From assembly GCF_000208385.1 (NCBI RefSeq), contig NC_015436.1, forward strand, positions 620,001 through 684,000: a stretch of DNA of 64,000 nt. The letters are read 5' to 3'. Both the position numbers and the translations under genes were made by a program. This DNA is from Parasphaerochaeta coccoides DSM 17374 (GTDB lineage: Bacteria; Spirochaetota; Spirochaetia; Sphaerochaetales; Sphaerochaetaceae). The notes beneath the pieces are model-generated. The model did not search any database. It saw only the letters and a list, made by a program, of their open reading frames with translations, and was not told the DNA's origin. Below are positions 1 to 25,580 of this stretch, piece by piece. Within the stretch, counting starts at the first letter, position 1. Each line of letters opens with the position of its first letter.

Positions 1-362
1 ACTATCGCCTGGAGATGAAGGATGTGAACGGAAAACATGTGGGCTGGGTGCTCGACCTTACAGGTAGCGGCTTCGGCGGACCAATGCGCATCGTTGCAAG
101 CTATGACCTTTCCGGAGCCATCATCGCTGGTACGATACTGGAGAATACCGAAACACCCGGTATCGGGACACGGAGCCAGGAGCCTGGGTATTTCGATATG
201 TTCACAGGAACAGGAGGTCAGGTTCCCGTACCCGTTTCCGCAGCCAGGCTCAGTGCAGGTCATGTACAGACAATGAGTGGTGCGACGATTACTTTTACTG
301 GCATTGCCCGCGCACTTGCAGCAGGTTCCGACTATATCAAGAGTCTGGGAGGTACAAGGTGA
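1..362 (+). CDS. rnfG: RnfG, C-terminal part (FMN-binding subunit of the Rnf/Rsx electron-transport complex)
   Basis: The reading frame is open from the first bases of the window, so the start of the gene lies upstream. The visible part ends in the FMN-binding domain. It contains an SGATIT motif, the site where members of this family carry FMN covalently on threonine through a phosphoester bond, followed by a short tail. RnfG sits on the outer face of the inner membrane and passes electrons within the ferredoxin:NAD oxidoreductase ion pump. The stop overlaps the start of the next gene by 4 bases (GTGA), as expected in an rnf operon where rnfE and rnfA follow. Identity is secure from motif and context; the N-terminal membrane anchor cannot be seen here. 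Confidence 0.9.
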   Translation, partial: YRLEMKDVNGKHVGWVLDLTGSGFGGPMRIVASYDLSGAIIAGTILENTETPGIGTRSQEPGYFDMFTGTGGQVPVPVSAARLSAGHVQTMSGATITFTGIARALAAGSDYIKSLGGTR

Positions 363-997
363 TGAAATTCACAACATATGAGCAAGACGGACAGACATCA
401 ATGCCAGCAGTATGCCTTGCTCTGGGCATATGCACTGCGCTGGAAGCTGCTGCCGCCGTCAATTCCGCCATTGTCCTTGGACTTCTTCTGTTGTCAATCA
501 TGATGCTTTCTTCTCTTGTCACATCGTTCCTGCGGAAGGTCATAACTTCTGATGCCGCTCTTTTGGTGCCGCTCATCGTCATTGCTACCTTCACATCCGC
601 CGCATCCCTTTTGCTTCAGGCTTTTGCTCCCGCGTTGCATGGGACATTGGGAATTTCGCTTCCTTTGCTGACAGTGAACGCTCTTATTCTCAGTCGGATA
701 CATGGTTTTGCCCGTGGACATGGAGTTATAGCTTCAATGCGTGACAGCCTCCTGAGCGGGCTTGGTTTTCTGGGGAGTCTGACAGTCATAGCCCTGGTCA
801 GGGAAGTACTGGGGAAGGGGACTGTCACCCTCTTTCCCATAGGGGATTGGAACGGTGTCATCACGCTGCCTTTTATTTCCTCCGCGCCCATCAAGGTTGC
901 AGTGAGTATGGCAGGAGGTCTGATGGTGCTGGGCATGTTCATGGCATTCCATTCCGTTGTCTTGGCTAATCGGGCAGAGAAGGAGAAAACAGCATGA
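359..997 (+). CDS. rnfE: RnfE, membrane subunit of the Rnf complex (one of two iron-ligand cysteines missing)
   Basis: An integral membrane protein of 212 residues with about six hydrophobic segments, matching RnfE/NqrD. A GGAGG at 348-352 serves either the GTG at 359 or the ATG at 362. The first conserved motif (LGICTAL, Cys25) matches the usual LGLCPAL. In the second motif, where E. coli RsxE has TNC, this protein reads VNA with alanine at residue 108. In Rnf/Nqr structures RnfA and RnfE each give two cysteines to an intramembrane iron-sulfur centre, so one of RnfE's ligands is absent. The order rnfG-rnfE-rnfA and 4-base overlaps at both ends support the assignment. Confidence 0.9.
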   Translation: MMKFTTYEQDGQTSMPAVCLALGICTALEAAAAVNSAIVLGLLLLSIMMLSSLVTSFLRKVITSDAALLVPLIVIATFTSAASLLLQAFAPALHGTLGISLPLLTVNALILSRIHGFARGHGVIASMRDSLLSGLGFLGSLTVIALVREVLGKGTVTLFPIGDWNGVITLPFISSAPIKVAVSMAGGLMVLGMFMAFHSVVLANRAEKEKTA

Positions 998-1584
998 GTT
1001 ACATTGGCATACTTATTACCTATATCCTTGTCAGCAATCTTGTCCTTGTCCACGGGCTAGGAATTGGGACGCTTGCGGCTCCTTGCCCCACACGCACAAA
1101 GACTTCCGTGGCTGCTTTGATAGCAGTTTCAACTGTCCTTTCCGGCATCTTGGGCTGGATAGTCAGAACTGTCATTCTGCTTCCTTTGAAAGCGGATTAC
1201 TTGTCCGTGCTGGTCTCTGTCATGATTGTGGCAGGCATCGGCATGGCGGTGTTGGCTGTTGTCAGGGCATATGCGCCGGAATTTCATGAAGACGTCAAGG
1301 CGTTTGCTCCCCATGTCCTGACTGATGGCATAGTCATGGGACTGCTCCTGATTATTGCTATGGAAGGTTATGGTTTTGGTCAGGCTCTCTTTGCGTCGGC
1401 AGGGACAGGACTGGGCTTTCTTTTGGTTGCCGTTCTCCTGGGGAATATCCATGAACGCCTGCTTCTTCATCCTGTAAGGAAATCTTTTTCCGGTCTTCCC
1501 ATCTTGTTCGTTTCGTTGGGACTGATGGCTTTGGTATTTTCTGCGGTTGATTCCACGCTTCTCACGAATCTAAATCTCATGTAA
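994..1584 (+). CDS. rnfA: RnfA, membrane subunit of the Rnf complex (both iron-ligand cysteines missing)
   Basis: A 196-residue membrane protein with about six transmembrane segments. It aligns with E. coli RsxA through the N-terminal asparagine motif, the ILLPL segment and the C-terminal ERL region. The canonical LGLCPF motif reads LGIGTL (Gly25) and the TTNCAVLG motif reads LTDGIVMG (Gly112), so neither cysteine of the usual iron centre is kept. Cys31 lies a few residues after the first motif and could in principle substitute. It overlaps rnfE by 4 bases and is the last gene of the operon. The 268 bases that follow show no gene. Confidence 0.88.
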   Translation: MSYIGILITYILVSNLVLVHGLGIGTLAAPCPTRTKTSVAALIAVSTVLSGILGWIVRTVILLPLKADYLSVLVSVMIVAGIGMAVLAVVRAYAPEFHEDVKAFAPHVLTDGIVMGLLLIIAMEGYGFGQALFASAGTGLGFLLVAVLLGNIHERLLLHPVRKSFSGLPILFVSLGLMALVFSAVDSTLLTNLNLM

Positions 1585-17013: not shown

Positions 17014-17192
17014 TCCTATCCTCCCAATATTTTTATGATTATTCTTGGTTATACAATACGCGGTACCATCCGGAAATGAAAAAATTGTGCAAAAATTGTG
17101 CAAGGACTTTGCTCGATGATAAACGAATGGTTTCCATTGGCAAAGTTCCAGATCGCGAATATAATAATACAAGATTGACAGGAGGGCCATGT

Positions 17193-18275
17193 ATGGATTT
17201 TATGACTGCAAAAGAAGCATCTGCGCTTTGGGGAATCTCGCAAAGGCGAGTGGCACTTCTGTGTTCAGAAAACAGGATTGATGGTGCCGAAATGATGGGG
17301 AAGATGTGGCTGATTCCAAACACGGCGACAAAGCCTGATGATGCCAGGAGCTTGCGCTTCCAACCGCTTGAATGCCTGCCTGTTAAACCATTTGTGAAAT
17401 GGGCAGGAGGCAAAGCTCAGATATTAGATGAGATACGACGCTTATATCCATCTGGATTAGGAGCGACAATCACGAAATACGCCGAACCATTTGTCGGTGG
17501 CGGTGCAGTGTTGTTTGATATTCTTAGCAAGTATCAGCTTGACGAAATATATATAAGTGACATTAACCGCGAGTTAATCGCAACGTATACACACATTCGA
17601 GACGACGTTGGCGAACTCGTTGATGCTCTCAGAACTATGGAGCAAGAGTATATTCCAGCTTCGGATGATGACCGTAAAGAATACTATTATGAAAAGCGTG
17701 AACGCTTCAATCATCTGAAAGCAGAATCCGATACGAGCGTAGAAGTCGCAGCCTTATTCATTTACCTGAATCGGACTTGCTTCAACGGGTTGTACCGCGT
17801 CAATAGCAAGGGCGGGTTCAATGTTCCGATGGGGAGCTACAAGAACCCGACTATTTGTGATGAAAACAATCTGGCAGCGGTGTCCGAACGTTTACAGAAT
17901 GTCGAAATTGTCTGCGGCGACTACAAAGAATCGTGGAGCTTCATAGACAAGAGGACTTTTGCTTATTTTGATCCTCCTTATCGACCGCTTTCCGATACAG
18001 CGAGCTTCACATCATATGCCCAAGATGGGTTTGATGATGATAAGCAGGAAGAACTTGCCCGGTTCATTAAGGAATTGAGCCGAAAGGGCGCGTATGTCGT
18101 CGCAAGCAATTCTGATCCGAAGAATACCAATGAGGGTGATAACTTTTTTGATGAACTTTACAACTCACTTTCTATTGCCAGAATTTCTGCAAGTCGCACC
18201 ATCAATTCCGTTGGTGATAAACGCGGACGGGTAAGTGAGTTGTTGATTTCTAATTGTGAGGCGATAAGAGTATGA
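17193..18275 (+). CDS. HTH-fused DNA adenine methyltransferase (Dam/D12 class, GATC-type)
   Basis: The ATG at 17193 is preferred to one at 17076 because GGAGG lies 7 bases before it. The product is 360 residues. Residues 1-50 (MTAKEASALWGISQRRV) form an excisionase-like helix-turn-helix, usually found as a stand-alone regulator in Firmicutes. From residue 67 it is a D12-class N6-adenine methylase: FVKWAGGK (67-74), EPFVGGGAV and DPPY (260-263). With the DpnII-like nuclease next door the site is most likely GATC. The HTH may let the methylase regulate its operon. Confidence 0.88.
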   Translation: MDFMTAKEASALWGISQRRVALLCSENRIDGAEMMGKMWLIPNTATKPDDARSLRFQPLECLPVKPFVKWAGGKAQILDEIRRLYPSGLGATITKYAEPFVGGGAVLFDILSKYQLDEIYISDINRELIATYTHIRDDVGELVDALRTMEQEYIPASDDDRKEYYYEKRERFNHLKAESDTSVEVAALFIYLNRTCFNGLYRVNSKGGFNVPMGSYKNPTICDENNLAAVSERLQNVEIVCGDYKESWSFIDKRTFAYFDPPYRPLSDTASFTSYAQDGFDDDKQEELARFIKELSRKGAYVVASNSDPKNTNEGDNFFDELYNSLSIARISASRTINSVGDKRGRVSELLISNCEAIRV

Positions 18276-19129
18276 GAGACTTTGCCGAATGGCTTTCTCG
18301 TTTCCGAGAGAGCATCAGCGATTATGCCTATTACATTGACTTTGCCAAGGTTCACAAGAATGTTGATACAATCAAGGTTGAACTGAATATCCTGAACTCA
18401 CTGATTGGCTCGCAAAACATCGAGGCAGAGTTTGATGCTCTAGTCACGAAATACCCGGACACGCTGAAATGCGTACCCCTCTTGCTTGCGGTCAGGGCGA
18501 GCGAAATTTACGCTATTGACGAGGATGGTGAGTTTACATATGAGTTCCCCAAACCCAACCAGACCGCTGCGCAGTACAGGGTATTTATGCGAAAAACAGG
18601 ACTCTTTGATCTAATGGAGCAACACATTGTCCATAGCCTTGTGGACTACGCGACAGGTGTGGAAACCGGGCTTGATAGTAATGGGCGCAAGAACCGAGGC
18701 GGTCACTTGATGGAGAATCTTGTTGAGAACTATCTTCGCAAGGCTGGCTTTAAGCGCGATGTCAACTACTTCAAAGAAATGAAGCTTGCTGATATTGAGA
18801 GCAAATGGGGTCTTAATCTGTCGGCACTGAGTAATGATGGTAAGACGGTCAAACGGTTTGATTTCGTTGTCAAGACGGAGCAAACAGTCTTTGCCATTGA
18901 AACGAACTTCTATGCGAGTAGCGGCTCGAAGCTGAATGAGACGGCGCGGAGCTACAAAAACATTGCACAAGAGGCACAGAGTATTGATGGGTTTGCTTTC
19001 GTCTGGTTCACTGACGGTAAGGGGTGGATTTCCGCAAGACACAATCTTGAAGAAACCTTCGATGTGATGGAGCACATATATAGTATTTCAGACTTAGAGA
19101 ACGGAGTAATGGGCAGGATATTTCGATGA
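18272..19129 (+). CDS. DpnII/MboI-family type II restriction endonuclease
   Basis: A 285-residue protein. The N-terminus (FRESISDYAYYIDFAKV) and the C-terminal FAIETNFYASSGSKLNETA are characteristic of the DpnII/MboI family, which cuts before GATC. The FDF...IETN stretch supplies the acidic active-site residues. It overlaps the methylase upstream and the second methylase downstream by 4 bases each, so the three genes form one operon. The length is normal for DpnII and there is no sign of inactivation. Confidence 0.9.
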   Translation: MRDFAEWLSRFRESISDYAYYIDFAKVHKNVDTIKVELNILNSLIGSQNIEAEFDALVTKYPDTLKCVPLLLAVRASEIYAIDEDGEFTYEFPKPNQTAAQYRVFMRKTGLFDLMEQHIVHSLVDYATGVETGLDSNGRKNRGGHLMENLVENYLRKAGFKRDVNYFKEMKLADIESKWGLNLSALSNDGKTVKRFDFVVKTEQTVFAIETNFYASSGSKLNETARSYKNIAQEAQSIDGFAFVWFTDGKGWISARHNLEETFDVMEHIYSISDLENGVMGRIFR

Positions 19130-19863
19130 CAATAAGAAAATGGGAGCCGGATAATTTTGAGTTAGAGACTAATACGGTATGGAGTTTTCCTGATCGCGGG
19201 AACTGGGCGACGCATGATGCCAAGTGGCGCGGAAACTGGTCGCCGTATATACCAAGGAACATATTGCTTCGCTACTCCGGAGAGGGCGATTGGGTGCTTG
19301 ACCAATTTGTCGGCGGTGGTACGACATTGGTTGAAGCGAAACTGTTGAACCGCAATATCATTGGCATCGATGTCAATCCGGATGCACTGAATCGGTGTAA
19401 GGCGAAGATTGATTTTGAGTGTCCAAATGCAGGAACAGTAAAGCTATATCAAAACTCAGCGGGTAATCTGAGCTTCATTGAGGCTAACAGCATAGATCTG
19501 ATTTGCACGCACCCACCATACGCTGATATTATCCATTACAGCGAAGATATCGAAGGCGATCTTTCTCTAATGAGTGTTCGTGATTTTCTGGGTGCAATGA
19601 AGCCTGTTGCAGAAGAATGCTACCGTGTATTGAAGAAGGGGAAGTTTTGCGCCGTACTGATGGGTGATACTCGTAAAAAAGGTTGTGTTATTCCGATGAG
19701 CTTTGATGTTATGAAGATATTTGAAGCGGCTGGATTCGTAACGAAAGAGATAATCATCAAGGAACAGCACAACTGCAAGGCGACGGGTTATTGGAAAACC
19801 AATAGCATAAAGCATAACTTCCTGTTGTTGGCGCATGAGTATTTATTTGTGTTCCGGAAATAA
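19126..19863 (+). CDS. Second DNA methyltransferase of the restriction-modification operon (N4/N6 amino type)
   Basis: A 245-residue methylase. The S-adenosylmethionine-binding loop FVGGGTT is at residues 61-67, with IGIDVNP after it. The catalytic motif reads HPPY (129-132), a variant of D/N/S-PPY. Motif I precedes motif IV, unlike DpnA, where the order is reversed. It is therefore not the usual single-strand GATC methylase of DpnII systems; what it methylates is unclear. It is translated in overlap with the nuclease gene. Confidence 0.75.
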   Translation: MTIRKWEPDNFELETNTVWSFPDRGNWATHDAKWRGNWSPYIPRNILLRYSGEGDWVLDQFVGGGTTLVEAKLLNRNIIGIDVNPDALNRCKAKIDFECPNAGTVKLYQNSAGNLSFIEANSIDLICTHPPYADIIHYSEDIEGDLSLMSVRDFLGAMKPVAEECYRVLKKGKFCAVLMGDTRKKGCVIPMSFDVMKIFEAAGFVTKEIIIKEQHNCKATGYWKTNSIKHNFLLLAHEYLFVFRK

Positions 19864-21321: not shown

Positions 21322-22209
21322 TCAATCAGCCACAGACAGAGCAGCCCGCACTCTGTTTAAGAACATTTTCGATGCCTTGGAGAACACTTGGTATTTTTTC
21401 CAGACCAACGACATGCCTGCCTCCAGCCGGGGTTCCAGAGGGCGGAAACACAAGTCGCCGTCGTGCGGGACGCCAACAAGGCGGTCGAAGCAGATTGCAC
21501 TGCCGATACCTTCCTCAACCATCAGTTTCGGGGTGTTGATCAGATTGTACGTGGCAACTACATTCAATTTTTCGCATCCATGTCCAAGCCATCCCGACAA
21601 CCCGTTCTCATCCAGCATTTGTTTGGAACAAACAAGGGGAATCCCTCTTAGGTTTTCCGGCCGTATGACGTCCAAATCGGCCAACGGCGCATCTTTGCGC
21701 ATCAGAACACCCCAGATGTCCGCTTCGGGCAAACGCAGGTTGTCATACTTGCTGAGGGTCACAGGTTCAAACAACACGCCAAAATCAATCAGTCCTTTAT
21801 CCAATCGTTCCGTCACGTCATAGGAGTTTCCGCTGAAAATGTGATAGCGAATTTTTGGGCAGTCCCGTTGAAACTGTTTCATGATTCCAACCAGAAAACG
21901 CATGCCCTCCGATTCACCGCCGCCGAAATAAACGTCGCCACCGATTTCCTCATTGGAAGCCATAACCTCCGCTTTCGCTTTTTCCATCAGGTCAACGATT
22001 TCTTCTGCCCGCTTCCTGAGTATCAGCCCTTCATCGGTTAGCGTGATTCTTCTGTTGCCTCTGATGAACAATGTTTTGCCGAGTTCATCTTCCATGTCTT
22101 TCAGGGCACGGGACAGCGGTGGTTGTGTCATGTTCAGTTGTTCGGCAGCGCCACTGATACTCTGCTCACGTGCGACTGCAAGAAAATATTGCAAAACACG
22201 TATATCCAT
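21322..22209 (-). CDS. LysR-family transcriptional regulator
   Basis: A 295-residue regulator. The N-terminal winged helix (residues 1-60: FLAVAREQSISGAAEQLNMTQPPLSRALKDMEDELG) is typical of LysR, followed by a two-lobed ligand-binding domain. It is divergent from the flavodoxin-AKR gene, with a 17-bp palindrome carrying a T-N11-A LysR box in between, so it most likely controls that gene and itself. AGGAGGTG lies ahead of the ATG. The inducer cannot be inferred. Confidence 0.93.
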   Translation of the reverse strand: MDIRVLQYFLAVAREQSISGAAEQLNMTQPPLSRALKDMEDELGKTLFIRGNRRITLTDEGLILRKRAEEIVDLMEKAKAEVMASNEEIGGDVYFGGGESEGMRFLVGIMKQFQRDCPKIRYHIFSGNSYDVTERLDKGLIDFGVLFEPVTLSKYDNLRLPEADIWGVLMRKDAPLADLDVIRPENLRGIPLVCSKQMLDENGLSGWLGHGCEKLNVVATYNLINTPKLMVEEGIGSAICFDRLVGVPHDGDLCFRPLEPRLEAGMSLVWKKYQVFSKASKMFLNRVRAALSVAD

Positions 22210-22346: not shown

Positions 22347-23864
22347 ATGCGGAGGATAAAGGATACAGCCTTGCGAAACATCAGACGAGCATTAGCGGTA
22401 ATCATCGCTTTAACCTTGATAACAATGTCTTTGTCGGCTTGCGGCACCAATGAACCGTATGCTGGGACAGGCGTCAGCCCGGAGACACAAACAGAATCTG
22501 AGAACTCTGTATCCGATACGTCGGCAAATGAGGAGGATACGAAGGTGCTGGTTGCGTATTTTTCATGCACGGGAACAACGGAAGCCATCGCAAAGGGCAT
22601 AACGGACGCAACGGGCGGAACGCTTTATCAAATCCTGCCTGAAGTGCCGTACACGGCTGCCGACCTTGACTATAATGACGGTAGTTCACGCGCCAACAAG
22701 GAACAAGACAGCGCTGCCGCCCGTCCCGCCATCAAAGGCGGTGCGGAGGGCATTGAAAAATATGATGTTATATTCTTGGGCTATCCCATCTGGTGGGGGC
22801 AGGCACCGAAAATCATTTACACATTTCTTGAAAAGTATGATTTTTCGGGCAAAACGATTGTACCATTCTGCACCTCTCATTCAAGTGGAATAGGCACAAG
22901 CAATACAAATTTGCACAGCCTTGCGCCTACTGCAAATTGGATAGAAGGCAAGCGGTTTGCCGCTGGTGCGAGCAAGTCAAAAATATCGGAATGGATAGAC
23001 AGCCTCGGTTTGAAAACGGGCGGTGCTGTGTCATCCTTCAACCTCTCGGCAGGGGAAAACGGCAAAGCCCCGACCGTGACGCTGAACAGTGGATACGAGA
23101 TGCCGATAGTGGGACTTGGAACTTACAGCCTGCTTGACGATGTGTGCGTAAACTCGGTTGCTTCCGCGCTCCAAAGTGGTTTCCGAAAGATTGATACCGC
23201 CTATATGTATCACAACGAAAAGGAAGTCGGAGAAGGCGTAAGGAAATCCGGCGTTCCGCGAGAGGAAGTATTTGTCACGACAAAGCTGTATCCGAATCAA
23301 TACGCAAACGCAGGAACTGCTATTGGTGAAGCTCTTGAAAAATTGGATTTAGGGTATATTGATTTGATGTTGCTTCACCACCCCGGAAAGGGTGATGTGG
23401 AGGCGTATAAGGCTATGGAGAAGGCAGTGGCTGAGGGCAAAATTCGCTCTATTGGGCTGTCTAATTGGTACATCGAGGAGATTGACGGCTTTATCTCGCA
23501 GATCGCGATCATGCCTGCGCTCATACAGAATGAAATTCACCCCTATTATCAGGAGAATGAAGTGATTTCGTATATGCAAGGCAAAGGCATCGTAATGGAA
23601 GCGTGGTATCCGCTTGGTGGCAGGGGGCATACAAAAGAGCTTTTTGAGAACGAAACCATCGCGGCGATAGCGGCGGCGCACGGGAAATCGCCCGCACAGG
23701 TGATTTTGAGGTGGGATTTGCAAAAAGGGGTGGTCGTCATACCGGGATCAAGCAATCCCGACCACATCAAGGAGAATATCTCCGTCTTTGATTTTGAACT
23801 GACAGATGAGGAAATGAATCGGATTAACGCACTTGACCGGGGTGAAAAACACGATTGGTATTGA
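22347..23864 (+). CDS. Lipoprotein fusing a flavodoxin domain to an aldo/keto reductase
   Basis: A 505-residue protein. A lipoprotein signal ends in LSAC (Cys32). Residues about 67-225 are a flavodoxin fold with FMN-binding YFSCTGTTEAIA and GYPIWWGQAPK. From about residue 244 a complete aldo/keto reductase follows (MPIVGLGTYS), with the catalytic Asp/Tyr in DTAYMY, Lys in TTKLYP and His in LLHHP, ending in DRGEKHDWY. The AKR part usually stands alone as a cytoplasmic NADPH enzyme; here it would be tethered outside the cytoplasm, where NADPH is scarce, unless the signal is not used. It heads an operon and is probably controlled by the divergent LysR regulator. Confidence 0.85.
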   Translation: MRRIKDTALRNIRRALAVIIALTLITMSLSACGTNEPYAGTGVSPETQTESENSVSDTSANEEDTKVLVAYFSCTGTTEAIAKGITDATGGTLYQILPEVPYTAADLDYNDGSSRANKEQDSAAARPAIKGGAEGIEKYDVIFLGYPIWWGQAPKIIYTFLEKYDFSGKTIVPFCTSHSSGIGTSNTNLHSLAPTANWIEGKRFAAGASKSKISEWIDSLGLKTGGAVSSFNLSAGENGKAPTVTLNSGYEMPIVGLGTYSLLDDVCVNSVASALQSGFRKIDTAYMYHNEKEVGEGVRKSGVPREEVFVTTKLYPNQYANAGTAIGEALEKLDLGYIDLMLLHHPGKGDVEAYKAMEKAVAEGKIRSIGLSNWYIEEIDGFISQIAIMPALIQNEIHPYYQENEVISYMQGKGIVMEAWYPLGGRGHTKELFENETIAAIAAAHGKSPAQVILRWDLQKGVVVIPGSSNPDHIKENISVFDFELTDEEMNRINALDRGEKHDWY

Positions 23865-23877
23865 TAGGAGAATGCCA

Positions 23878-24615
23878 ATGAAACGGATTATGCCGACAAT
23901 TATGCTGTTTATGTTGCTTGCTTTAACCGCTTGTAACAGCACAAACAGCAGTTTAATCAGCGATGATACAAGCTCTACTGTAACGGCGACCGATAAAACA
24001 GGAGCAACCGGGGCACAAACCCCGGAGCCGTCGAGCAATGCTGACGTTATAAGTGAGGAACCTGCGGACACGGATACCGGTTCGCCTGCTGCTGCACCAC
24101 CACTTTTTGACACAAAACCGCCGGAAGCGACAAGTTCTACGGTGAAGCCGGATGTTACGTCGAGTTCTGCTCCGGCGAAACCGCCGGATACGCCAAGCCC
24201 CACACCGAGCAGTACGCCCGAACCCGAACCAATAGAACCAACTAAAACTGAGGAAATAGATATGAGCAAAATGATGATCACAGTAGGAAGCACTACTTTT
24301 ACAGCAACTATGGAGAATAACGCATCCGTCAAGGCGCTAATGGAGTTACTCGTCAAAGAACCGTTGACAATCCAAATGAGTGAATACGGCGGTTTTGAAC
24401 AGGTCGGCTCGCTCGGTCAACGATTGCCCTCAAACGACCTGCAAACCACTGCATCGGCGGGGGATATTGTCCTTTATTCAAGCAATAACATCGTCATTTT
24501 TTATGGCAGTAACTCGTGGAGCTACACGCGCCTCGGCAAGATTGAGAGTGCGGGTGCAAAAGAAATCAAAGACGCCTTCGGGAGCGGCGCTTCCGTCACG
24601 CTTTCTATAAACTAA
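23878..24615 (+). CDS. Lipoprotein with a C-terminal cyclophilin-like domain
   Basis: The ATG at 23878 is chosen over 23872 because AGGAG (23866-23870) is then 7 bases away; 245 residues. The signal peptide ends in LTAC (Cys19). A long low-complexity linker rich in Thr, Ser, Pro and Glu (about 22-135) acts as a stalk. The last 110 residues form the small cyclophilin-like beta-barrel ([46 protein letters not shown]). Such domains are often near flavin oxidoreductase genes in gut bacteria. Proline isomerase activity is not proven for this subfamily. It is co-transcribed with the upstream fusion gene. Confidence 0.75.
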
Positions 24616-25207: not shown

Positions 25208-25278
25208 TCTATCGCGATTTTCAAAATCTAAAACTGTCCGCGTTGGGATTCAGGGCAATAGTAAACCCGCGAAAATGA
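25204..25278 (+). pseudogene. N-terminal remnant of an aldo/keto reductase gene
   Basis: The 24-codon frame begins [16 protein letters not shown], the standard N-terminus of bacterial aldo/keto reductases that continue with GxMRLP. Here it turns into unrelated codons and stops, overlapping the next start. It keeps a start that overlaps the acetyltransferase stop. The body of the gene has been deleted. Confidence 0.7.
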
Positions 25279-25580
25279 AAGTTTTAGGAATCAACGGCAG
25301 CGCAAGAAAAGACGGCAACACCGCTATCATTATCCGAAAAGTATTTGAAAGATTAAATGAAGCGGAGATTGAAACAGAACTTATCCAGTTTTCGGGGCAG
25401 ATTATCGAGCCATGTAAAGCCTGTTTCGCCTGTGGCGGCAAAGGTAACTGCGTCTATCAAAAAGATATGTTTGCCGAAGTGTTTGCAAAGATGGTGCAGG
25501 CAGATGGCGTTATTTTTGGTTCGCCGAACGAGATTGTGGAAATCATATCCGGGCTGACGGGTAGGCGCGTCCACGAGTAG
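25275..25580 (+). pseudogene. Truncated NADPH-dependent FMN reductase/flavodoxin-like gene
   Basis: The first 86 residues match iron-sulfur flavoprotein/FMN reductases: KVLGINGSARKDGNTA (FMN phosphate loop), the paired cysteines CKACFACGGKGNC, and ADGVIFGSP. The family continues for about 100 further residues with the flavin-binding core; here the sequence switches after GSP to unrelated residues and stops at 101. It is therefore probably inactive. It marks a second deletion junction within a few hundred bases of the first. Confidence 0.72.

What the first reader, a model, noticed from the sequence alone, without database searches (positions are those of the whole stretch)
22347..23864. Lipoprotein that fuses flavodoxin and aldo/keto reductase
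Both halves keep their cofactor and catalytic motifs, joined after a lipoprotein signal. AKR enzymes use NADPH in the cytoplasm, so an exported, membrane-tethered version paired with flavin implies an unusual electron source, for instance the FMN-bind and flavodoxin proteins encoded a few kilobases downstream.
Basis: partly seen in the sequence, partly recalled or inferred. Interest (0 to 1): 0.55.

Follow-up and report, generated by a model that had tools for sequence, protein, structure and literature searches.

The report
Cell-surface flavodoxin–aldo/keto reductase fusion
A bacterium carries an enzyme normally found inside cells, an aldo/keto reductase, joined to a flavin protein and apparently anchored outside the cell membrane; it belongs to a family of such exported enzymes in anaerobes, and how they obtain electrons outside the cell is unknown.

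Summary
Window 22347-23864 is one 505-aa frame: lipobox signal (C32), Flavodoxin_4 (66-219), low-confidence linker, aldo/keto reductase (AKR). It is not an assembly error: 24 of 80 best named loci in a genome scan, one other class-mate genome (67% identity) and 6 further genomes of 391 Clostridia sampled carry the same join.

The fusion is a branch of something larger: an AKR subfamily ending in EKHDWY that is exported. All 86 best AKR frames carry a lipobox, signal peptide or N-terminal helix, with swapped anchors (SLH, dockerin, Ig-like, Tat); one weaker relative has none. Flavodoxin fusion came and went repeatedly. The cluster is conserved: divergent LysR, hydrolase, acetyltransferase, FMN reductase, flavodoxin, cyclophilin-like lipoprotein.

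The catalytic tetrad is kept, but the two residues that grip NADPH's 2'-phosphate are Gly and His in 86 of 86, as in an engineered mutant (1M9H). The window genome lacks TatC, so export is probably by Sec, unfolded, with FMN and nucleotide bound outside.

Likely role: extracytoplasmic carbonyl reductase using NAD(H). The electron route is unsolved. Function is inferred, not shown.

The parts
21322..22209 (-). Divergent LysR-family regulator
   Evidence: Pfam HTH_1 E 2.1e-22, LysR_substrate E 2.1e-21; a LysR of this cluster lies near 54 of 80 AKR loci, window included
22347..23864 (+). Flavodoxin-AKR fusion lipoprotein, 505 aa
   Evidence: Single frame; Pfam; same join in other genomes
22347..22442 (+). 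Lipoprotein signal, residues 1-32, lipobox SLSAC, C32
   Evidence: Read; helix 2-30 in model; Lgt and LspA in genome
22542..23003 (+). Flavodoxin_4 domain, residues 66-219
   Evidence: Pfam E 1.4e-53; PDB 3klb, 4ici, 4j8p; FMN-loop conservation over 29 fused domains
23016..23060 (+). Interdomain linker, residues 224-238
   Evidence: pLDDT under 50 in the AlphaFold2 model
23070..23861 (+). AKR domain, residues 242-505, ends EKHDWY; tetrad D283 Y288 K313 H344; G467 and H473 at the 2'-phosphate clamp
   Evidence: Pfam; PDB alignments; conservation; VIA-align Z 33.6 to YvgN, 32.6 to 1m9h
23878..24615 (+). Cyclophilin-like lipoprotein (LTAC lipobox), 245 aa
   Evidence: Pfam Cyclophil_like2 E 2.9e-27; the same domain is fused to the AKR in L064, L072, L087, L105
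24629..25207 (+). Hexapeptide-repeat acetyltransferase
   Evidence: Pfam Hexapep E 1.4e-17; relative near 31 of 80 AKR loci
25275..25580 (+). FMN-reductase-like gene, truncated (101 aa; all but one of its relatives are 173-248 aa)
   Evidence: Pfam FMN_red E 4.6e-17; lengths; relative near 35 of 80 loci

Best explanation
The protein is an extracytoplasmic carbonyl reductase of an exported AKR subfamily, encoded in a LysR-regulated cluster. Shown by sequence: one frame; lipoprotein signal; intact AKR tetrad and FMN loop; loss of the NADPH 2'-phosphate clamp; no TatC in this genome. Inferred: it leaves by Sec unfolded, is lipidated, folds outside the inner membrane, and binds FMN and an NAD(H)-type nucleotide there. 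Inferred: the AKR reduces reactive carbonyls (for example glyoxal-type aldehydes) at the cell surface or in the periplasm, and the flexibly tethered flavodoxin is its redox partner. The route by which reducing power reaches the nicotinamide outside the cell is the least certain step; extracytoplasmic flavin carriers (Rnf, FMN-bind, ApbE systems) are the most available source. Confidence by layer: exported AKR family about 0.9; NAD(H) rather than NADP(H) about 0.7; active reductase about 0.6; flavodoxin as direct partner about 0.35.
For: Export: 86 of 86 AKR frames with a signal. Anchors are exchanged: SLH in the closest relative L049, Dockerin_1 in L060, Big_2 in L043, L050 and L053; Tat-type lipoprotein signals in L114, L120 and fused L133. 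Treponema-like G349 has two adjacent genes, each with its own signal peptide. TatC absent from G000. Catalysis: D283, Y288, K313 86/86, H344 85/86; S372, N373, Q394, W420 86/86; 16 of 21 cofactor/catalytic positions invariant against 81 of 264 overall, hypergeometric p 1e-5. Clamp: G467 and H473 86/86; 1M9H aligns Gly and His at the same positions and its title names K232G and R238H. The genome's own AKR without a signal keeps IPKS...R. Partnership: fusion state changes at least 12 times on the tree, 5 forced by starred branches; flavodoxin, fused or separate, at 40 of 80 loci. dN/dS well under 1 in both domains.
Against: No biochemistry. Signals were called by a home-made rule plus eye, not SignalP. 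The 86 were chosen by similarity, which favours uniformity; one relative in the second sample, L139 (283 aa), has no signal. Clamp loss is also seen in L005 and L007, which have no signal, so it probably preceded export and is not an adaptation to it. 5 of 17 genomes searched have TatC over the cut-off, so Sec-only export is not universal. ApbE and FMN_bind are both missing from 2 of 17 (completeness of these two unknown). The model gives pTM 0.54 and a low-confidence linker, so no defined docking of the two active sites. No extracellular source of NADH is known to me.
Confidence: 0.5

Rival explanations
1. Nicotinoprotein: the exported AKR keeps one bound NAD(H) that cycles between two substrates (oxidise one, reduce another, or epimerise one), so no outside donor is needed; the flavodoxin is a separate function on the same tether.
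For: Nicotinamide-contact residues S372, N373, Q394, W420 are invariant in 86. 57 of the 86 exported AKRs have no fused flavodoxin, so flavodoxin is not obligatory. Glucose-fructose oxidoreductase is an exported precedent (recalled).
Against: The recalled precedent goes by Tat, already loaded; this genome has no TatC. It does not explain recurrent flavodoxin fusion.
Confidence: 0.2
2. Scavenger: a plain NADH-dependent reductase that uses NADH present in its surroundings (periplasm or gut fluid from lysed cells).
For: Clamp replaced by Gly/His in 86 of 86, which fits NADH.
Against: Supply would be unreliable and does not explain the fusion; none of the recurrent neighbour families looks like nucleotide uptake or export.
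Confidence: 0.15
3. The AKR domain no longer does redox chemistry and serves as a binding or scaffold domain.
For: The cofactor paradox outside the cell.
Against: Tetrad and nicotinamide site are invariant or nearly so; dN/dS about 0.04-0.07 in two close pairs.
Confidence: 0.07
4. The signal is not cleaved or not used, and the enzyme stays cytoplasmic.
For: L139 in the wider sample lacks a signal; AKR/flavodoxin pairs without signals exist in other bacteria, for example Pusillibacter.
Against: 86 of 86 close relatives carry a signal of several types, and surface anchors (SLH, dockerin) are swapped in.
Confidence: 0.06

Closest known systems
AKR superfamily, 2,5-diketogluconate reductase / YvgN group (PDB 1A80, 3D3F, 1MZR)
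   Same: Fold (Z 32.4-33.6, 37-42% identity), catalytic tetrad, nicotinamide site
   Different: Exported; Gly/His in place of the clamp Lys/Arg; EKHDWY end; fused to flavodoxin, cyclophilin-like or surface domains
Engineered 2,5-DKG reductase A with F22Y, K232G, R238H (PDB 1M9H)
   Same: Gly and His at the positions of G467 and H473 (title)
   Different: Laboratory mutant of an enzyme that works inside cells (recalled)
Flavodoxin_4 proteins (PDB 3KLB, 4ICI, 4J8P)
   Same: Same domain along its length, E 2e-50 to 2e-42
   Different: Those are single-domain entries of 159-171 aa; here it is the N-terminal part of a lipoprotein
ApbE-flavinylated extracytosolic redox proteins (PMC8238504, passages read)
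   Same: Flavin redox chemistry outside the cytosol; ApbE and FMN_bind are present in this genome
   Different: No ApbE acceptor motif in this protein; flavin would be non-covalent; AKR is not mentioned in the paper's main text
LysR - flavodoxin - AKR clusters on plasmids of Pusillibacter, Achromobacter, Pseudosulfitobacter
   Same: Regulator, flavodoxin and AKR side by side; cupin and carboxymuconolactone decarboxylase near them in Pusillibacter and Achromobacter
   Different: AKR without signal and with Lys at the clamp; flavodoxin without a signal in Pusillibacter or with a Tat-like signal in the other two

Membership tests
Aldo/keto reductase (PF00248) | Profile match over the barrel | tested here: met
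   E 1.4e-48, residues 269-497, 165.9 bits against cut-off 24
Aldo/keto reductase (PF00248) | Catalytic tetrad D-Y-K-H | tested here: met
   D283, Y288, K313, H344
Aldo/keto reductase (PF00248) | NADPH 2'-phosphate clamp (Lys, Arg), usual but not universal | tested here: not met
   G467, H473 in 86 of 86 exported AKRs; Lys in 28 and Arg in 25 of 40 comparison AKRs, 8 of which are themselves exported
Aldo/keto reductase (PF00248) | Carbonyl reduction with a nicotinamide nucleotide | not testable with these tools
   Needs purified protein
Flavodoxin_4 (PF12682) | Profile match | tested here: met
   E 1.4e-53
Flavodoxin_4 (PF12682) | Phosphate loop and aromatic flavin neighbour | tested here: met
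   S73 29/29, T78 29/29, T75 28/29, W149 29/29 over fused domains; the roles of these residues are recalled
Flavodoxin_4 (PF12682) | Bound FMN | not testable with these tools
   Needs purified protein
Bacterial lipoprotein | Lipobox with Cys after a hydrophobic stretch, plus Lgt and LspA | tested here: met
   SLSAC, C32; Lgt and LspA
Bacterial lipoprotein | Lipidation and location | not testable with these tools
   Needs labelling or fractionation
Tat substrate | Consensus twin-arginine motif and TatC in the genome | tested here: not met
   RR present but followed by ALAV, no consensus; no TatC match in G000
ApbE-flavinylated protein | D-x-x-(S/T)-G-A-(S/T) acceptor motif | tested here: not met
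   No match in P0001; the motif itself is recalled

The most novel reading that the evidence does not exclude
A flavin-driven aldo/keto reductase: outside the cell, a captive NAD in the AKR is re-reduced by the tethered FMN domain, which is fed by membrane flavin carriers. This would be an FMN to nicotinamide to carbonyl wire that needs no diffusible NAD(P)H, and it would explain export without Tat, loss of the NADPH clamp and repeated fusion to flavodoxin.
Probability: 0.15. Interest if true: 0.85.

Novelty: new variant of a known kind. Interest (0 to 1): 0.6.

Why it matters
AKRs are textbook cytosolic NADPH enzymes (general knowledge). A subfamily that is consistently exported, keeps its catalytic site and has dropped the NADPH clamp makes a clear question testable: can a nicotinamide enzyme work outside the membrane, and with what donor? 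If so, anaerobes of the gut and other habitats would have surface carbonyl reduction that current annotation as plain 'aldo/keto reductase' hides.

Tried and rejected
Assembly error: rejected (same join in independent genomes). Cytoplasmic form: rejected for the family, untested for this protein. Tat export here: rejected. Covalent flavin through ApbE: no acceptor motif (one of 29 fused frames, L052|8, matches it). Downstream FMN-bind and flavodoxin as dedicated partners: not conserved beside other AKRs. Tight docking of the two active sites: not seen (pTM 0.54). Phage origin: no relative in the viral scan with P0001. Of the first hits that looked fused, L005, L017, L033 and L034 turned out to be separate genes. 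G349 and G378 encode flavodoxins matching Treponema saccharophilum's at 182 of 206 and 188 of 208 aligned positions; being class-mates of the window genome, they suggest it is a spirochaete; names are withheld, so this is inference.

Literature: searches returned no paper with flavodoxin, aldo-keto reductase and lipoprotein together; the listings showed nothing on an exported or flavodoxin-fused AKR. The library holds open-licence papers only. PMC3543383 (passages) is irrelevant. PMC12274486 (abstract and a reference) cites glyoxal resistance from E. coli AKR YafB; it does not describe this cluster. One search did not bring up the paper behind 1M9H.

Rows dropped before counts: L091 (AKR score 317, under the 380 limit) from the 86 and from the neighbour table; 24 of the 40 comparison AKRs were left out of the tree (one search used 102 rows: 86 + 16). 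In one search the automatic start was wrong for L041, L042 and L052|8 (lipoprotein start visible) and L087|3 (visible); lipoboxes of L049, L063, L077 and L107 were read by eye. Only 10 loci of the 18 matching genomes were read for signals.

Full report
What is there. Window 22347-23864 (+) is one open frame of 505 residues. Residues 1-32 form a lipoprotein signal (positive start, hydrophobic core, SLSAC with C32). Residues 66-219 match Flavodoxin_4 and 269-497 match Aldo_ket_red. The closest solved relatives are YvgN, prostaglandin F synthase and 2,5-diketogluconate reductases for the AKR half and the flavoproteins 3KLB, 4ICI and 4J8P for the flavodoxin half. The AlphaFold2 model has mean pLDDT 80.2 and pTM 0.54, with linker residues 224-238 under 50. 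So the two halves fold, but their mutual position is not defined. The AKR half aligns with YvgN at Z 33.6.

Not an artefact. The genome is a single 2.23-Mb contig. Among 394 genomes of its class, two have the fusion in one frame, this one and G084 at 67% identity. In a scan of named genomes, 24 of the 80 best loci have it, including Christensenella intestinihominis, Eisenbergiella tayi, Robinsoniella peoriensis and Dielma fastidiosa. In 391 Clostridia-type genomes it is in one frame in 7, one of which was the centre genome already known to have it (the group is the class of the Eisenbergiella tayi genome).

An exported AKR subfamily. From those 80 loci plus the window and G084 I took every AKR frame scoring at least 380 bits against the window's AKR half: 86 frames, 29 fused and 57 not. 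All 86 begin with a lipobox, a signal peptide or an N-terminal hydrophobic helix (four starts corrected by eye). All 86 end in DWY, 84 in HDWY. The anchor varies: SLH domains in the closest relative L049, Dockerin_1 in L060, Big_2 in L043, L050 and L053, and twin-arginine lipoprotein signals in L114, L120 and L133. Cyclophil_like2 can be fused directly to the AKR (L064, L087, L105) or sit between flavodoxin and AKR (L072); in the window it is the next gene, itself a lipoprotein. More distant exported relatives (L006, L033, L035-L040) also carry signals. The counter-example is L139 in the wider sample: a 283-aa frame without a signal, next to a truncated copy.

Order of events. A quick maximum-likelihood tree of 102 AKR domains puts the 11 AKRs without a signal on one side of a single branch (support 95), while the fused state needs at least 12 changes, 5 forced by starred branches. 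Export therefore seems older than the fusion, and the fusion is gained and lost repeatedly. In L055 two AKR halves are 99.2% identical while their flavodoxin halves are 64% identical, which points to module exchange. The tree is a quick one with long branches among the comparison rows, so fine detail should not be trusted.

Active sites. The tetrad D283, Y288, K313, H344 is complete in 85 of 86 (L103 has Tyr at 344). Nicotinamide-contact positions S372, N373, Q394 and W420 are invariant (the assignment of these roles is recalled). The clamp for NADPH's 2'-phosphate, Lys and Arg in most of the comparison AKRs (28 and 25 of 40), is Gly467 and His473 in 86 of 86. PDB 1M9H, an engineered 2,5-diketogluconate reductase whose title names F22Y, K232G and R238H, aligns with Gly and His at exactly these places. 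That the mutant was made to use NADH is recalled. The genome's own AKR without a signal keeps IPKS...R (L002). Against a simple story: L005 and L007, without signals, also have Gly and His, so the change probably came before export. In the flavodoxin half S73, T78 and W149 are invariant in 29 fused domains. dN/dS is well below 1 in both halves.

Export route. TatC has no match in the window genome and is over its cut-off in 5 of 17 genomes searched, so this protein most likely leaves by Sec, unfolded. Lgt and LspA are present. Passages of PMC9973259 state that Sec-exported proteins needing a cofactor must get it outside, and describe a flavin exporter in Firmicutes. The FMN could be supplied in such a way; an outside source of NAD(H) is not known to me.

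Neighbourhood. Within 6 kb of the AKR (where the contig allows), 80 loci including the window have: LysR 54, flavodoxin fused or separate 40, FMN-reductase-like 35, alpha/beta hydrolase 32, hexapeptide acetyltransferase 31, cyclophilin-like 10 (the hydrolase is named by eye). The window has LysR, fusion, cyclophilin-like, acetyltransferase and a truncated FMN reductase in that order. Related clusters whose AKR has no signal and whose flavodoxin has either no signal or a Tat-like one exist in other bacteria. The genome does hold one ApbE, three FMN_bind matches, one of them in a 609-aa frame that reads like an exported fumarate-reductase-type flavoprotein, and Rnf-like genes at the window start (the last two identifications are by eye). 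Across the 17 genomes searched ApbE and FMN_bind each occur in 15, with no comparison to non-carrier Clostridia.

Reading. The best-supported account is an extracytoplasmic carbonyl reductase of the NAD(H) type with a tethered flavodoxin, under LysR control, plausibly against reactive carbonyls. Location and family are well supported. Catalysis is likely. The electron route is open. The boldest reading not excluded is that the flavodoxin re-reduces a captive nicotinamide. The chief rival is a nicotinoprotein that needs no donor, which fits the 57 exported AKRs that have no fused flavodoxin. Searches in open-licence papers found no description of exported or flavodoxin-fused AKRs; subscription papers were not covered.

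Noticed in passing
window 25275-25580: FMN-reductase-like gene is cut to 101 aa while its relatives beside other AKR loci are mostly 173-248 aa; looks like a decayed gene.
   Followed up: partly
window 1-1584: Rnf-like membrane subunits and an FMN_bind match (69-320) at the window start: an extracytoplasmic flavin route in this genome (Rnf names by eye).
   Followed up: partly
L128 (G000 C1:404184 region): 609-aa lipoprotein frame with FMN_bind and a fumarate-reductase-like part: an exported flavin reductase elsewhere in this genome.
   Followed up: no
window 17076-19863: Three adjacent frames that look by eye like a DpnII-type restriction-modification set (adenine methylase, nuclease, second methylase); not tested.
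   Followed up: no
L055 and L050: Neighbouring AKR copies with nearly identical or identical AKR halves but different N-terminal modules: module exchange or gene conversion.
   Followed up: partly
L050:7872-10181: One frame with two flavodoxin domains, an Ig-like domain and an AKR.
   Followed up: no
L056, L065, L105: Records titled Methanomassiliicoccus, Alistipes and Chloroflexi carry Firmicutes-like copies; possibly misbinned contigs.
   Followed up: no
L034:1486-2394: In G378 the separate AKR gene appears split into two frames, apparently broken, while the flavodoxin gene is intact.
   Followed up: no
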